From Magnetospirillum sp. WYHS-4 (GTDB taxonomy: Bacteria; Pseudomonadota; Alphaproteobacteria; Rhodospirillales; GLO-3), in NCBI GenBank assembly GCA_039908345.1, contig JAMOBD010000022.1, positions 1 through 40,004 on the forward strand: a stretch of 40,004 bases of DNA. The letters run 5' to 3'. The notes under the pieces are model-generated. The model was given only the letters and a program-made list of their open reading frames with translations, did not search any database and was not told the DNA's origin. Positions 24,369-39,425 of the stretch are shown here, piece after piece; within the stretch, counting starts at the first letter, position 1; each line of letters begins with the position of its first letter. Made by a program: the position numbers and the translations under genes.

Positions 24369-24540
24369 GGTCCCCCTCCTTGCGGATCATGGCCACGGTG
24401 CCGGCGATGGCGACGCCCGCCGTCGAGATGATCTGCCATACCCCCGGCTCCAGATGGACGCCGGCGGCGGCGGCGATGGCGGCGATCCCGGCCCATGTGC
24501 TGGGTTCCTTGAGGCGGTCGATGATGGCGTTCGCGTTCAT
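24361..24540 (-). CDS. Holin candidate, small membrane protein
   Basis: The 59-aa protein (MNANAIIDRLKEPSTWAGIA) has two hydrophobic segments, about residues 15-29 (STWAGIAAIAAAAGV) and 33-50 (PGVWQIISTAGVAIAGTVAM), and a charged C-terminus RKEGDRG. It starts as ATGA over the endolysin stop. Size, topology and place fit a small holin; no motif proves it. Confidence 0.65.
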   Translation of the reverse strand: MNANAIIDRLKEPSTWAGIAAIAAAAGVHLEPGVWQIISTAGVAIAGTVAMIRKEGDRG

Positions 24541-25007
24541 CCGCGCGTCTCCCGATAAAAGGCGTGCCGCCCGATCCGCGCCGTCTCGATCATGCTTTTG
24601 GCCCAGGACGGGTCGACCAGCTTGGGGTTGATGTAATGGGTGGCCCCGCCGGTGTTGTCGACCAGCCGGCCGGCCAGGGCGTCGCGGGCGATGGCGAGGC
24701 AGTCGGCGAAGGCCTTGTCCGCTTCCGTCACCGCCAGCATCTTCGGCAGGTTCTGGTCGCTCCCGTTCCAGCAACTGAACTGCAGGGGTTGGAGGCAGAC
24801 TTCCTTGGGCGTTTCACCCCACCAGAAGCGGGTGCCCTTGCGGCGGCGATGGGCCTGGGCGCGGGCGGCCCGATTCAGGATCACGCAGGCGACCGCCACG
24901 CGGCCCTCATGCTTCTCTCCGCGCGCCTCTCCCCAGAGGGTGCGGGCGAGCACCTGCTCCTCGCTCAGGTCGTGCGGATCGGGCAGGCTGTCGGGATCGA
25001 CGGACAT
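24537..25007 (-). CDS. Endolysin, SleB-type cell wall hydrolase
   Basis: The 156-aa protein has the Hydrolase_2/SleB pattern: ARTLWGEARGEKHEGRVAVA with the likely catalytic Glu27, CVILNRAARA, PLQFSCWN and GATHYINP. It should cleave peptidoglycan at lysis. ATG 25007 follows AGGGGG. No signal peptide is seen, so it depends on a holin. It is the first gene after Mor, where Mu-like lysis genes begin. Confidence 0.9.
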   Translation of the reverse strand: MSVDPDSLPDPHDLSEEQVLARTLWGEARGEKHEGRVAVACVILNRAARAQAHRRRKGTRFWWGETPKEVCLQPLQFSCWNGSDQNLPKMLAVTEADKAFADCLAIARDALAGRLVDNTGGATHYINPKLVDPSWAKSMIETARIGRHAFYRETRG

Positions 25008-25079
25008 GGGATTCCCCCTTCGCTTTGGCGTCGGGAGAGCATCGCGCGGGCGGGCGGACGGGACCATGGGACGGGCGTC

Positions 25080-27661: not shown

Positions 27662-27918
27662 TGCGCGGGCTCCCAAAACTGGCAGGCCGGGGAACCGACC
27701 TTGATGTCGGTCCCGGCGCCGAAGGTCCACTTGACCAGGCCGCACTTGACCAGGCCGCACTTGTGGTAGGTCCTGCCCCGCCCGTGCCCGGTGCGGTGCC
27801 GACAGGTCTTGCAGGTCTCTCCTTGGGGGCCGCCGCCCGGCCGCGCGGCGTAGCCCTTGGCCGGACGGGCGGGCACGTTGGGGACCACGTTGCCCCACAG
27901 GTCGATCTGCGGGCTCAT
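27658..27918 (-). CDS. Small Cys/His-rich protein, probable zinc binder
   Basis: The 86-aa protein has CKTCRHRTGH, a run YHKCGLVKCGLVK and a final CQFW, giving five cysteines and several histidines suited to a zinc site. The doubled CGLVK encodes a short repeat (DNA repeat near 27736..27765). Small proteins with this CKTC...CGLVKW...CPxF-like layout occur in Mu-like phages. Function is unknown; DNA or RNA binding is possible. Confidence 0.75.
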   Translation of the reverse strand: MSPQIDLWGNVVPNVPARPAKGYAARPGGGPQGETCKTCRHRTGHGRGRTYHKCGLVKCGLVKWTFGAGTDIKVGSPACQFWEPAQ

Positions 27919-27957
27919 GGCCGGCCCCCGTGACAGGGACCGGCCACGTCCTCGCGG

Positions 27958-28089
27958 CTACCGCCGCCGTTGCGGCGGCTTGGGGTTGCTCCAGACCAGG
28001 CGTAGGCCGAAGCGGCGTGGCGTGCTGGATTCCTCCAGCAGGCGGGGAAGCTCCGCCTGGAGGCGGTCCTCCCGGACCCGCCTATCCAT
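27958..28089 (-). CDS. Small basic protein, 43 aa
   Basis: Starts MDRRVREDRLQAELPRLLEE and ends in PKPPQRRR. ATG 28089 follows GGGGAGG and overlaps the antirepressor-like stop by 8 bp, as ATGGATAG. Helical, then basic. It is too short to place in a family, but its spacing and ribosome site support it. Confidence 0.6.
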   Translation of the reverse strand: MDRRVREDRLQAELPRLLEESSTPRRFGLRLVWSNPKPPQRRR

Positions 28090-28732
28090 GGGCGTCCTCC
28101 CCGGCCTTCATCTCGGCCAGGGCGAACCTGAGCTGCTTGTCGGGATTGCCGGGCCAGTCGGGCAGCAGGCCGCAGTCCTGCATGGCCTCCCAGGTGTCGT
28201 CGATCTCCGACGAGGTCAGCCCGAGCTGGTGCTGGATCGAGCTCCAGCCGTAGCCGCCCTCGTGATGCAGCCGGTGCACCCGGCTCCAACGCTGCCTGGT
28301 CACCAGCAACTGCATGGTCAGGTTGCGGTTGAACCGCCGCAGCAGGGCGAGTTCCTTCATCAGCCCCGGATGGGCCGCGTCGCCCAGGATGAAGTGGCGG
28401 TAGAGCACCTCGTCGCAGTGCTGTTGGTAGGCGATCAGCTTGTCCCGCGCTTCCGGCTTGACCCGGTTGGGATGGATGGTCATCAGCCAACCGAAGAGAC
28501 GGCGCTGGGGCAGGCAAGTCACCGACCGATTTTGGTCGTCTCCAGGCATCTGCATCACCATGATGGTGACGCCCCAGCGCTCCGAATTGCTGCTCAGCTT
28601 GCGGTGCTGGACCTGCCAAGCCAGCCCGAGGGCATCGCAGATCGGCTTGATGGGCACCATCTGCTCCCCGTCCTGGACGATGTAGGACAGGACGTCGCCC
28701 TGGAAGGGCACGGAAATCAGGTTCGCCGACAT
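28082..28732 (-). CDS. Antirepressor-like protein (P22_AR_N domain)
   Basis: The 216-aa protein has the P22_AR_N domain: VPFQGDVLSYIVQDGEQMVP, IKPICDALGLAWQVQHRKLS, CLPQRRLFGWLMTIHPNRV and YQQHCDEVLYRHF. In P22, Ant binds and inactivates the prophage repressor; many phages carry the N-domain with other C-termini. Here the C-terminal ~80 residues are helical and unlike P22 Ant. It is in the middle block, so it may tune repressor or host functions (inference). AAGGAGG lies in the end of the upstream gene. Confidence 0.85.
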   Translation of the reverse strand: MSANLISVPFQGDVLSYIVQDGEQMVPIKPICDALGLAWQVQHRKLSSNSERWGVTIMVMQMPGDDQNRSVTCLPQRRLFGWLMTIHPNRVKPEARDKLIAYQQHCDEVLYRHFILGDAAHPGLMKELALLRRFNRNLTMQLLVTRQRWSRVHRLHHEGGYGWSSIQHQLGLTSSEIDDTWEAMQDCGLLPDWPGNPDKQLRFALAEMKAGEDAHG

Positions 28733-28735
28733 GGC

Positions 28736-28960
28736 TCAGGCCTCCTTGGACAGGGCGTTCAGGTTGGAAAAGGCGGCGGCCGCCACATGCTGGCATGCCA
28801 TCCGCACCAGGGCGCACTTGAACGCCCTGTCGCACTTCGCCTTGCACCACAGCAGGTGCGCGAGATAGGCGGGGGAATTGGCCTTGTGGGCGTTGGCGAC
28901 CAGCCAGCCGTCCACCAGCGCGCGGGCGCGCGCCGACTTGTCCGTGTCGTGTTGGGTCAT
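28736..28960 (-). CDS. Small helical phage protein, 74 aa
   Basis: Starts MTQHDTDKSARARALVDGWL, contains LLWCKAKCDRAFKCALVRMA with four cysteines counting the later one, and ends LNALSKEA. ATG 28960 has AGGAG 8 bp upstream. It is the first gene after the inverted-repeat-rich gap and may be the first of the middle transcript. I do not recognise the family. Confidence 0.65.
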   Translation of the reverse strand: MTQHDTDKSARARALVDGWLVANAHKANSPAYLAHLLWCKAKCDRAFKCALVRMACQHVAAAAFSNLNALSKEA

Positions 28961-29312
28961 GAGAAAAGCTCCTGTATGTGGTCGATCCAACCGACCACCG
29001 GAGCCCTTTGCCGAGGCCCTGGCGGCCGGACGTGCACGTTCGGCAAAGAACCGCCCACACAGGAAAACGGCTAGCCCGAAGGCTAACGCACACGCCCGAC
29101 CATGGGAAAGCCGCGCTCGACGGAATCGGCGCGGCTTGGGCGCCTGTATGAACGGTGGGGGCTTTGCCGACCCCCGCCGGCACCTTTTGCGTACCGGCAC
29201 CGTCCAGGCTGCGCCCGGAGGAAATGAAAGTCAAGACCGCGAAAACGACTCGCCAATCCGCTGGCGATTGCGCTACCCTGCGCCCATTCGTTGCATGAAC
29301 GGGGAGAATGAA
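28961..29312. other. Inverted-repeat-rich intergenic region
   Basis: About 350 bp without a supported gene, between the middle genes (minus) and the membrane cassette (plus). It contains dyads GTGGTCG/CGACCAC (28978..28998), CTTTGCCGA/TCGGCAAAG (29006..29048), a TTCG stem-loop terminator (29062..29086), AAGCCGCGC/GCGCGGCTT (29108..29137) and TCGCCA/TGGCGA (29250..29267). CTTTGCCGA recurs at 29162..29170, and CCTGTATG occurs twice (28971, 29143), so part of the region looks like a decayed duplication. Promoters for both directions probably lie here, but I cannot place them. Confidence 0.6.
29062..29086 (-). terminator. Rho-independent terminator with TTCG loop
   Basis: On the minus strand a stem of seven pairs (GTTAGCC/GGCTAGC, one G-T pair) closes an exceptionally stable TTCG loop and is followed by CGTTTTCC. 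It would end transcripts coming from the early operon after they cross the plus-strand cassette. Confidence 0.55.
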
Positions 29313-29573
29313 ATGGAGATTTTCCTGGCCATACTGTGGGTGGCCCTGTGGGCCGGCACCTGCGCCATCGTCGCGGGCGCCGCGCGGGGGCGCAGTCCCT
29401 TCGGCTGGGCCATCCTGGGGGCCTTGGTTTCGATGTTCGCCCTGATCGTCCTGCTGGCCCTGCCCAAGCGGGAAACGCGGGTCAAGGGCTGTCCGCGCTG
29501 CGCGGAACTGGTCAAGGACAAGGCCCTCGTCTGCCGGTTCTGCGGCCACGAATTCGCCGTCGCGACCGAATAG
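29313..29573 (+). CDS. Membrane protein with C-terminal zinc ribbon (cargo candidate)
   Basis: The 86-aa protein has two membrane segments (about residues 2-24 and 33-55, separated by a short loop GARGRSPFGW) and a zinc ribbon CPRCAELVKDKALVCRFCGH of the UPF0547 type at 65-84. ATG 29313 is chosen because GGGGAG lies 6 bp before it; an ATG at 29295 has no such site. It is transcribed against the surrounding phage genes, with a second membrane protein 18 bp downstream. Likely expressed in the lysogen, perhaps for exclusion of other phages (inference). Confidence 0.8.
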   Translation: MEIFLAILWVALWAGTCAIVAGAARGRSPFGWAILGALVSMFALIVLLALPKRETRVKGCPRCAELVKDKALVCRFCGHEFAVATE

Positions 29574-29591
29574 CCGGTCGGGGGACGAGCC

Positions 29592-29903
29592 ATGTTCGGA
29601 TCGAACAAGGGCGCCATGCCGCCGCCGGGCTGGAATCCGGGCGCCAAGGCCGGGCCGGAAATCAAGCTGCCGAGGGTGTCCGCCGCCGGGGTGCTGACCG
29701 TGCTGGTCGCCGTCAACCTGGTAGGACTGCCCTTGGCGGGGATCGCCTGGGCCGGCGCCAACGCGGCGCGGGGCGTTGTCGCCATCCTGGAGGCCGGCCT
29801 GCTGGTCTGGATCGGCCTGCTGACCAACGTGGCCCTCTTGGTCCACGCCCGCAAGGCCAAGCTGCTGGCGGCGATCCTGGCGCGGCTGGAAGCCAAGCCC
29901 TAG
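29592..29903 (+). CDS. Small membrane protein, partner in plus-strand cassette
   Basis: The 103-aa protein has a Gly/Pro-rich N-terminus (MFGSNKGAMPPPGWNPGAKA) and hydrophobic segments at about 33-53 and 60-85, then a basic helical end HARKAKLLAAILARL. ATG 29592 follows GGGGGAC. It ends 2 bp before the stop of the convergent minus-strand gene. With the upstream zinc-ribbon protein it forms a two-gene membrane cassette. I do not recognise the family. Confidence 0.75.
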   Translation: MFGSNKGAMPPPGWNPGAKAGPEIKLPRVSAAGVLTVLVAVNLVGLPLAGIAWAGANAARGVVAILEAGLLVWIGLLTNVALLVHARKAKLLAAILARLEAKP

Positions 29904-29905
29904 CA

Positions 29906-30169
29906 TTACGCATCTCCCCTCAGCCTGGCGCCATAGGAGGCCCGGTCGTTGACCGCGGCCACCAGGTCGTGCCAGTCGCCGCCCGCCGCGATCCAGGCCC
30001 GCACCAGGTTGTCGGCCGCCGGCAGGTCGCCGGGCACCGCCCGGAGGCAGCCGTTCAGCGCGGCCCCCCGGAGGCAGGCCATGCCGTCCAGGACGGACCG
30101 GGGCGTTTCCCGGCGGCGCCGGATGTAGCCGTCAATTTCCAGGACGGCGGCGAGGGCGGCGGCGATCAT
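29906..30169 (-). CDS. Hypothetical early protein, 87 aa
   Basis: Starts MIAAALAAVLEIDGYIRRRR and contains DLPAADNLVRAWIAAGGDWH and LVAAVNDRASYG. Helical throughout. ATG 30169 follows GGAGAAG inside the end of the nuclease fusion gene. It is the last gene of the early minus-strand series before the plus-strand cassette. Function unknown. Confidence 0.7.
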   Translation of the reverse strand: MIAAALAAVLEIDGYIRRRRETPRSVLDGMACLRGAALNGCLRAVPGDLPAADNLVRAWIAAGGDWHDLVAAVNDRASYGARLRGDA

Positions 30170-30170
30170 G

Positions 30171-30881
30171 TCACTTCTCCCCCGCGCACCAGGGCTGGCG
30201 GGCGCCGCCGTCGTAGCGGCGGGCCAGGCCGGCGGCGATCAGCACGTCCGCCAACTCACGGCCATCCGGCAGGATCACGCGCCCTAGCAGCCGGCCGTAC
30301 TTGTCCTGGCCGTCCAGGTGGATGGACACCCGCGCCCCCGCCGGGACCAGCATCTTGACGAGCGCCGTGGCATCGCGGGCGGCGGCCTTTTCAGCGGAGC
30401 ATTTGCCGTGGAGCTCCGGGGTGTCCACCCCGGCCACCCGCAGCCTGTCTCGCGCGACAACGCCCGGCCATACCGGGGCATCAATCGCGATGGTGTCGCC
30501 GTCGATCACCCCGGTGACGGTCGCCTCGTACACCGGCCAGGCGGCTGCCGAGCCGGCGTAGATCCAGAGCATGACGGCCGCCAGCGCGGTGCGGGCGCCG
30601 GCGAGCGCCGCCCGCCGCGGCCGGCCAGATGGCGCCGGACGATCCAGGTACTTGATCCGGGCAATGGGGTAGCGCAGGAGGACGGCTGGGTCGTCTGGCC
30701 GGAACCGGATCATGATCTTCTGCCCCGGCACGACGTGGTCGTCGAGCAGATCCGTGCCGACCCACGCCCAGGCCTGGCACGGGGCGCTGTCGATCACCTC
30801 CCCGTCCATGACTTCCCACCAGAGGAAGTCCTGTCCGTGATCTTCAAACTGCAGCCTCATGTGGCGCTTTCCGTTCGGCAT
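30171..30881 (-). CDS. Fusion: phage N-domain, membrane segment, thermonuclease domain
   Basis: The 236-aa protein has three parts. Residues 1-80 are a small soluble domain (LQFEDHGQDFLWWEVMDGEV). Residues about 91-114 form a signal-anchor-like segment (ALAAVMLWIYAGSAAA) preceded by RRAALAGAR. Residues 116-232 are a staphylococcal nuclease-like domain: VIDGDTIAI, LRVAGVDTPEL with Arg148, Asp153 and Glu156 aligned to the catalytic residues of that family, and DKYGRLLGRV with Arg197. No ribosome site precedes the nuclease part, so one fused product is expected, with the nuclease outside the inner membrane. ATG 30881 has GGAGGG upstream. Confidence 0.8.
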   Translation of the reverse strand: MPNGKRHMRLQFEDHGQDFLWWEVMDGEVIDSAPCQAWAWVGTDLLDDHVVPGQKIMIRFRPDDPAVLLRYPIARIKYLDRPAPSGRPRRAALAGARTALAAVMLWIYAGSAAAWPVYEATVTGVIDGDTIAIDAPVWPGVVARDRLRVAGVDTPELHGKCSAEKAAARDATALVKMLVPAGARVSIHLDGQDKYGRLLGRVILPDGRELADVLIAAGLARRYDGGARQPWCAGEK

Positions 30882-38921: not shown

Positions 38922-39425
38922 ATGAACCCAGAAATGACGGACAACCTCGCGAATCGCATTAGGCAGTGCGCCGATATGGCAGGAAGTGGCGACGAGCTAT
39001 CCCGCCGATCTGGCGTTCCTCGTCGGACGCTTGAGAACTACCTATCTGGTCGATCCGAGCCAAAGGCCACAACGCTTGCGGCGTTGGCGCGTCCGGTCGG
39101 TGTGTCTCTGGATTGGTTGATTACTGGCGAGGGACCGATGCTGGCCGGGGAGGCCGCGCCGCCGCCCGAGCGGCCTGCCGGCGGCCTGGACGCCGAGCTG
39201 CTGGGCTTGGTGGTCGAGGGCGTGGAAGCCTTGTACAAGGCCGAGTCCGCGCGCCTGACGCGCCGCGACCTGGGGCGCCTGGCCGCCCGCGTCCATGATG
39301 ACCTGGTGGCCGCCTATGATACCGCCGAGGAGCGCCGCATCGGCCTCAAGCTGGCCCTGGAGCACCTGCGCCGGGAGCTGCGTTCCGCCCCCGTCGCGCC
39401 CGATCAGGGCAAACTGTCGGCCTGA
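38922..39425 (+). CDS. XRE-family lysogeny repressor
   Basis: The 167-aa protein has an N-terminal helix-turn-helix (DELSRRSGVPRRTLENYLSG, residues 24-43) followed by LARPVGVSLDWLITGEGP, the common ending of phage XRE domains. The C-terminal part is helical (ESARLTRRDLGRLAARVHDD) and lacks the Ser/Lys peptidase of LexA-like repressors. It should bind the operator cluster directly upstream, hold ner-A-B silent and limit its own synthesis, because one operator copy overlaps its ribosome site. Without a peptidase, induction probably does not go through RecA cleavage. Confidence 0.85.
   Translation: MNPEMTDNLANRIRQCADMAGSGDELSRRSGVPRRTLENYLSGRSEPKATTLAALARPVGVSLDWLITGEGPMLAGEAAPPPERPAGGLDAELLGLVVEGVEALYKAESARLTRRDLGRLAARVHDDLVAAYDTAEERRIGLKLALEHLRRELRSAPVAPDQGKLSA

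What the first reader, a model, noticed from the sequence alone, without database searches (positions are those of the whole stretch)
29313..29903. Plus-strand two-gene membrane/zinc-ribbon cassette
Two membrane proteins with good ribosome sites are read against the lytic genes, behind a structured intergenic region. One carries a cytoplasm-facing zinc ribbon. This is the usual mark of cargo expressed by the lysogen, such as superinfection exclusion or another defence function, and I do not recognise the pair.
Basis: inference. Interest (0 to 1): 0.65.

Follow-up and report, generated by a model that had tools for sequence, protein, structure and literature searches.

The report
Prophage membrane gene pair beside C4 RNA
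A dormant virus in a bacterial genome carries two small membrane-protein genes, one with a zinc-binding tip, next to an RNA-controlled immunity switch, a place where phage P1 keeps genes that shut out competing viruses, so it is a good but unproven candidate for such an exclusion system.

Summary
The two plus-strand genes at 29313-29573 (A, 86 aa) and 29592-29903 (B, 103 aa) are real: codon use fits the phage's own genes, and A is a two-helix membrane hairpin with a four-cysteine UPF0547 zinc ribbon. The "structured intergenic region" is real but belongs to the opposite strand: a C4 antisense RNA (Rfam RF01695, 54.8 bits) with P1-like target sites, then a small ORF and a P22-type antirepressor gene, that is, a P1-type c4-icd-ant (immI) operon in a Mu-like prophage. 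A and B diverge from it, as the superimmunity genes simABC do in P1, but show no sequence similarity to them. Fifteen related Mu-like regions lack A, B and C4, so the pair is cargo. Homologues of A sit beside tape-measure genes (7 of 28 loci read; in some, the HK97 gp15 exclusion slot), in repressor neighbourhoods (3 of 28), and also on plasmids and chromosomes. B is nearly an orphan. Most likely a lysogen-expressed moron for superinfection exclusion at the inner membrane. Position is shown; function and expression are inferred, no promoter was found, and membrane orientation is unresolved.

The parts
29313..29573 (+). Gene A, 86 aa: membrane hairpin (helices 2-23 and 29-49) joined by a basic loop, then a four-Cys UPF0547 zinc ribbon (C60, C63, C74, C77)
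29592..29903 (+). Gene B, 103 aa: N-terminal tail, two hydrophobic segments, basic C-terminal helix; nearly an orphan (one weak match)
29018..29107 (-). C4 antisense RNA (Rfam RF01695), 54.8 bits, full-length match
29006..29014 (-). Target site like P1 a2: TCGGCAAAG, 9-nt complement of C4 CUUUGCCGA
28970..28975 (-). Target site like P1 b2: ACAGGA at the ribosome site of the icd-like ORF, complement of C4 UCCUGU
29162..29170 (-). Upstream copy of the first target (P1 a1-like): same 9 nt, between gene A and C4
29143..29147 (-). Possible upstream b1-like ACAGG, 5 nt, read by eye
   Evidence: not tested statistically
28736..28960 (-). Small ORF (74 aa) in the icd position, between C4 and ant; no convincing match to P1 Icd
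28082..28732 (-). Antirepressor gene ant (P22_AR_N, PHROG 524)
29906..30169 (-). Last minus-strand gene before the pair, 87 aa; its stop lies 2 bp from the stop of B; matches in 3 of 15 related regions
29250..29267 (-). Terminator-like hairpin between A and C4 (scan found 3 such sites in 28700-30200 against 1.5 expected, so weak evidence)

Best explanation
The pair is a moron (lysogenic-conversion) cassette that came in with, or beside, a P1-type secondary immunity operon (c4-icd-ant). On the minus strand the operon would make C4 RNA, which by base pairing keeps the icd-like ORF and the antirepressor silent in the lysogen (inferred from the C4 match and its target sites). On the plus strand, from a promoter in the same 29.1-29.3 kb region (inferred), A and B are made in the lysogen as small inner-membrane proteins. 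A most likely works by presenting its zinc ribbon at the membrane to block entry of DNA from superinfecting phages, possibly by disturbing a tape-measure-dependent step, as proposed for HK97 gp15; B would be its membrane partner. On induction, early minus-strand transcription would run antisense through B and A and shut them off (inferred). Shown: the genes, the C4 match and its target sites, absence from relatives, and the slots of A's homologues. Inferred: expression, exclusion, mechanism, partnership.
For: Coding statistics; ribbon and hairpin. C4 at 29018-29107 with complementary target sites before and after it (a downstream match as long as the best one, 9 nt, came up in 26 of 1000 shuffles), in the layout annotated in P1 as a1, b1, c4, a2, b2, icd, ant with simABC divergent. 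P1 Sim is described as possibly preventing DNA injection (PMC8546580, passages). P22 sieA, on a fragment with orf59a and mnt, gives exclusion, and SieA blocks DNA injection (PMC10883804, passages). In 0 of 15 related Mu-like regions were A, B, the icd-like ORF, ant or C4 found. A homologues: 7 of 28 loci beside a tape-measure gene (L038, L057, L062, the Pseudomonas group L088/L090/L091, L006, L036, and L100 without ribbon); in FSL SP-016 this is where HK97 has gp15, annotated 'moron product'. 3 of 28 by an S24-type repressor gene: L002/L040 and L042 tail-to-tail with it, L003 second gene after it with one small ORF between.
Against: No function of any A homologue was found in the papers searched. 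18 of 28 loci are neither beside a tape measure nor by a repressor, and several are chromosomal or plasmid genes. A has no detectable similarity to HK97 gp15, to P1 SimA, SimB or SimC (nor has B), or, in its hairpin, to PF14373 Imm_superinfect (probability 2%). A is absent from the 14 other C4 regions fetched, none of the 8 viral-contig loci of A homologues has a C4, and in the P1 relative D6 the neighbour upstream of c4 is repL, not sim. No promoter was found. B has no relatives that support a partnership; in the Microcystis phage the gene after the A homologue shows no match to B.
Confidence: 0.45

Rival explanations
1. Moron of another kind: A is a general bacterial membrane zinc-ribbon protein (envelope stress, metal or thiol sensing) picked up by the phage, which helps the lysogen but does not exclude phages.
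For: Relatives of A on chromosome-like contigs beside ordinary genes (L092, L093, L094, L099, L102) and on plasmids; relatives of the hairpin without ribbon (L059, L099, L100, L102, L103).
Against: Repeated placement beside tape-measure genes and by S24 repressors, and here divergent from c4.
Confidence: 0.3
2. A and B take part in the immunity switch itself, for example by acting on Ant or on the early transcript, so that their place beside c4 is regulatory rather than cargo.
For: They share a 206-nt divergent region with C4; A homologues lie tail-to-tail with S24 repressor genes in two loci; zinc ribbons can bind nucleic acid or protein (general knowledge).
Against: Both look like membrane proteins; A homologues occur away from any immunity region in most of the 28 loci read; 14 other C4 regions lack A.
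Confidence: 0.12
3. B (or A) is a lysis or pore protein such as a holin or antiholin.
For: Small proteins with two hydrophobic segments, and a basic C-terminal helix in B.
Against: They are on the strand opposite to the endolysin (24540-25067) and about 4 kb from it; no holin family matched A or B; A carries a zinc ribbon.
Confidence: 0.07

Closest known systems
P1 immI region: simABC / c4-icd-ant (NC_005856)
   Same: C4 RNA with target sites on either side, small ORF, antirepressor gene, and small genes divergent from c4 (273 nt in P1 from simA start to c4, 206 nt here)
   Different: Sim proteins show no similarity to A or B and begin with signal-like sequences (read by eye); the antirepressor here is of P22 type; the phage is Mu-like
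HK97 gp15 superinfection exclusion moron
   Same: Small moron predicted to lie in the inner membrane; A homologues occupy the same slot between tail chaperone and tape-measure genes in HK97-like phages
   Different: No sequence similarity, different PHROG (5031 against 8436), no zinc ribbon
Imm_superinfect (PF14373) proteins with a C-terminal zinc ribbon, e.g. Pseudomonas phage YMC11/02/R656 'immunity to superinfection'
   Same: Two-helix membrane segment followed by a zinc ribbon (UPF0547 over cut-off in L008 and L009, below cut-off in L063 and R656), and in R656 the slot before the tape measure
   Different: A does not match PF14373 and the hairpins do not align by profile
PHROG 8436 (unknown function)
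   Same: A matches over residues 6-83, E 2e-11; the Salmonella and Edwardsiella homologues match nearly end to end
   Different: A is a divergent member with a short linker
P22 sieA beside mnt (with arc and ant, recalled)
   Same: Membrane exclusion gene near an antirepressor region
   Different: Control by Mnt/Arc (recalled), not C4; SieA not compared by sequence here

Membership tests
UPF0547 zinc ribbon (PF10571) | Score over the curated cut-off; CxxC-x10-CxxC ribbon | tested here: met
   30.2 bits against 29; cysteines invariant in 7 aligned members
C4 antisense RNA (RF01695) | Covariance score over the gathering cut-off, full length | tested here: met
   54.8 against 45 bits, model positions 1-87
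P1-type immI operon | C4 complementary to sites upstream of itself and at the ribosome site of the next ORF, followed by ant | tested here: met
   9-nt match on both sides, 6-nt at the ribosome site; ant PF10547
P1-type immI operon | icd homologue | tested here: not met
   ORF present and coding but best alignment with P1 Icd is 5 of 20 residues, E 0.081 for one comparison
P1 Sim superimmunity proteins | Sequence similarity | tested here: not met
   A and B against SimA, SimB, SimC: no alignment, or 8-15 residue chance matches (best E 0.074 for one comparison)
HK97 gp15 family (PHROG 5031) | Sequence similarity | tested here: not met
   nor for the SP-016 homologue
Imm_superinfect (PF14373) | Profile match of the two-helix segment | tested here: not met
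   Not among Pfam hits of A at E up to 10; hhalign probability 2%
Superinfection exclusion system | Blocks superinfection when expressed in a lysogen | not testable with these tools
   needs a plating assay
Moron (cargo on a phage genome) | Absent from relatives at a variable place | tested here: met
   0 of 15 related regions; interval between the DUF3164 and gp16 matches about 0.35-5.3 kb in the 13 where both were found, 5.6 kb here
Moron (cargo on a phage genome) | Own promoter and terminator | tested here: inconclusive
   No sigma-70-like promoter found in 28700-30200 on either strand, so none for the c4 operon either; no terminator-like site after B
Padloc defence families | Model match | tested here: not met
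   One weak match for A, E 0.044; none for B

The most novel reading that the evidence does not exclude
A belongs to an unrecognised, widespread family of superinfection-exclusion proteins, a basic-loop membrane hairpin carrying a zinc ribbon, that phages park in immunity or injection slots (by the repressor, beside the tape measure, divergent from c4). The ribbon may even face the periplasm, where it would meet incoming tape-measure protein or DNA.
Probability: 0.3. Interest if true: 0.65.

Novelty: new variant of a known kind. Interest (0 to 1): 0.45.

Why it matters
If the pair excludes other phages, a family now listed only as 'zinc ribbon domain-containing protein', 'hypothetical protein' or PHROG 8436 gains a testable function, and its slots (tape measure, repressor, c4) suggest what it targets. 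It also shows a P1-type C4 antisense-RNA switch with its divergent cargo place in a Mu-like prophage. C4 RNAs are already listed for Proteobacteria and phages (PMC2864571, passages), so the RNA itself is not new; the combination is what I found no report of, without a search made for that combination alone.

Tried and rejected
Rejected: (1) structured leader of A-B: the fold signal is on the minus strand and includes a C4 RNA. (2) A as an Imm_superinfect member: profile comparison failed. (3) A or B as a HK97 gp15 (A only) or P1 Sim relative. (4) Minus-strand ORFs over the pair (27915-29906 and 29273-29896): open antisense frames score 0.03-0.08 bits/codon against 0.53 and 0.68, and the 207-aa frame has no Pfam match. 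(5) A and C4 as a fixed pair: A absent from the 14 other C4 regions fetched, no C4 in 8 loci of A homologues.

Led nowhere: viral-contig scans with B and with Ant found no relative; of 408 viral fold matches to A only two had E up to 0.001, both phage 'zinc-ribbon containing domain proteins', and B's two matches had E above 5; a first gene-calling script for the C4 regions was too noisy, its output was cut, and on the window it missed B and ant, so I draw no count from it; B's only genome match elsewhere was weak (36%, E 7.5e-4) and was not read further; the window-trained codon model finds no genes in L125 and L126 and two in L134 (lower GC), so ORF lists there are not used.

Literature: no paper holds 'superinfection exclusion', 'zinc ribbon', 'prophage' and 'membrane protein' together or 'superinfection immunity protein' with 'zinc ribbon'; 'UPF0547' occurs in none of the 15 papers listed of 92. 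The HK97 gp15 paper is not held; I know it from its title in reference lists and from passages of PMC10883804.

Full report
What is there. The window is a whole 40,004-base contig of its genome and holds a Mu-like prophage: a repressor-like gene on plus at 38922-39422; on minus a Ner-like repressor, Mu A and Mu B transposition genes, DUF3164, a nuclease, antirepressor, DNA methyltransferase, a gp16-like protein (PHROG 286; the name gp16 is recalled), late activator, endolysin, terminase, portal, head and tail genes. Genes A (29313-29573) and B (29592-29903) are on plus. Both have good ribosome sites and strongly coding codon use. A's start is also backed by the alignment of seven family members, in which M1 is invariant. 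AlphaFold2 gives A helices 2-23 and 29-49 and two short strands in the ribbon (mean pLDDT 80.5, seven sequences). B, folded from one sequence, is a helix 31-100 after a loose tail (mean 77.1), with two hydrophobic segments.

The structured region is the other strand's. Rfam C4 matches 29107-29018 minus over its full length. The 90-nt RNA folds better than 197 of 200 shuffles. Its CUUUGCCGA is complementary to TCGGCAAAG both just after C4 (29014-29006) and before it (29170-29162), and its UCCUGU to the ribosome site of the next ORF (28975-28970). A downstream match of 9 nt or more came up in 26 of 1000 shuffles of the target, which are shuffles of single bases, so the statistic is modest; a third, 6-nt match is probably chance (mean 1.1 matches of 6 nt or more per shuffle). 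The order of sites carries the weight: P1's record has the same order, a1, b1, c4, a2, b2, icd, ant. After C4 here come a 74-aa ORF in the place of icd, without convincing similarity to P1 Icd, and an antirepressor gene of the P22 type (the best phage matches are E. coli phage antirepressors, 35-39% identical). In P1, full repression of ant needs C4 (PMC8198154, passages).

A-B and the c4 operon diverge. In P1 the genes divergent from c4 are simABC, annotated as superimmunity, and Sim is thought to stop superinfecting phages from injecting DNA (PMC8546580, passages). In P22 the exclusion gene sieA was cloned with orf59a and mnt (PMC10883804, passages; that mnt lies by arc and ant in immI is recalled). 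The place is therefore suggestive. It is not a rule: in the P1 relative D6 the upstream neighbour of c4 is repL, A is in none of the 14 other C4 regions that I fetched (17 C4 matches in 9 other genomes, one match below cut-off), and none of the 8 viral-contig loci of A homologues has a C4.

The pair is cargo. A search with DUF3164 found related Mu-like elements in 16 other genomes of 199 searched, the window's own among the 199; I fetched regions from 15 of the 16, leaving out one near a contig end. tblastn with 16 window proteins at E 0.001 found no A, B, icd-like ORF, ant or nuclease in any of the 15, although gp16 was found in 13 and the 87-aa gene before B in 3. None of the 15 has a C4 over cut-off. 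Where both DUF3164 and gp16 were found, the distance between the matches runs from about 0.35 to 5.3 kb, against 5.6 kb here. The regions vary in GC and distance from the window, so a very diverged A could be missed.

Where A's relatives live. I read the neighbours of 28 loci (three near-identical Pseudomonas phages counted once; L002 and L040, and L004 and L005, counted once each; loci whose ribbon is joined to PF14373 or to a similar segment left out: L008, L009, L063, L087, L089; loci that match mainly over the ribbon not read). Seven are directly beside a tape-measure gene: FSL SP-016, a Salmonella Infantis plasmid with phage genes, a Klebsiella plasmid with phage genes, the Pseudomonas group, Methylobrevis L006, Microcystis phage Mae-JY04, and L100, whose hairpin lacks the ribbon. 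In L006, L036 and L100 the gene is on the opposite strand, divergent from the tape measure. Three are by an S24-type repressor gene: L002/L040 and L042 tail-to-tail with it; L003 second gene after it on the same strand, overlapping the stop of a small ORF that lies between. The other 18 are: Edwardsiella between minor tail protein L and a tail assembly gene; two Klebsiella phages beside lytic-transglycosylase genes and hypothetical genes; Marinomonas phage P12026; plasmids L055, L058, L059, L060, L061; chromosomal or unresolved L004/L005, L043, L085, L092, L093, L094, L099, L102, L103. In unannotated loci the neighbours were read by eye, and by family search only for the proteins named. I have no control for how often an unrelated small membrane gene falls in these slots. 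In a separate search 12 of 385 genomes of the class, the window's own included, had a match to the A1 profile at E 1e-6 or better; with A alone 10 of 199 relatives, own included, at E 0.001.

Mechanism. HK97 gp15, TP-J34 Ltp and Tuc2009 Sie2009 are reported to block DNA injection, and escape from Ltp and gp15 is tied to tape-measure or tail genes (PMC10883804, passages). A's relatives share the slot with gp15 and with a PF14373-ribbon gene annotated 'immunity to superinfection' in phage R656. They do not share sequence with gp15, and the hairpins of A and PF14373 do not align. So A works like them at best by analogy. The ribbon's side is open: the family's basic loop argues for loop-in and ribbon-out.

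Judgement. The genes, the C4 match with its target sites and the cargo status are solid. Exclusion is the best single guess at about 0.45. B's role rests only on adjacency.

Noticed in passing
L128:2413-2481: A type II hammerhead ribozyme (RF02276, 46.9 bits, cut-off 37) lies in the variable interval between DUF3164 and gp16 of a related Mu-like region.
   Followed up: no
window:30171-30893: The nuclease gene looks like a fusion: an N-terminal stretch matching PHROG 27241, then a signal-peptide-like segment (by eye), then the SNase domain.
   Followed up: no
window:25980-27134: A DNA methyltransferase whose N-terminal part matches ParB-like partition proteins.
   Followed up: no
L133 (interval between DUF3164 and gp16): A related region has an opposite-strand ORF of 222 aa with two hydrophobic segments just before gp16; codon support is weak.
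   Followed up: partly
L074 and L076: Some genomes of the same order carry several C4 RNAs close together (three within about 2.5 kb in one contig, two within about 2.9 kb in another).
   Followed up: no
L063:2863-3651: A Methylobacterium plasmid protein joins Imm_superinfect, a zinc ribbon (UPF0547 just under cut-off) and a TonB-like C-terminal domain.
   Followed up: no
window:29901-29908: The stop codons of B and of the last minus-strand gene before it are 2 bp apart with no terminator-like site found there, so early transcription may read antisense through A and B.
   Followed up: no
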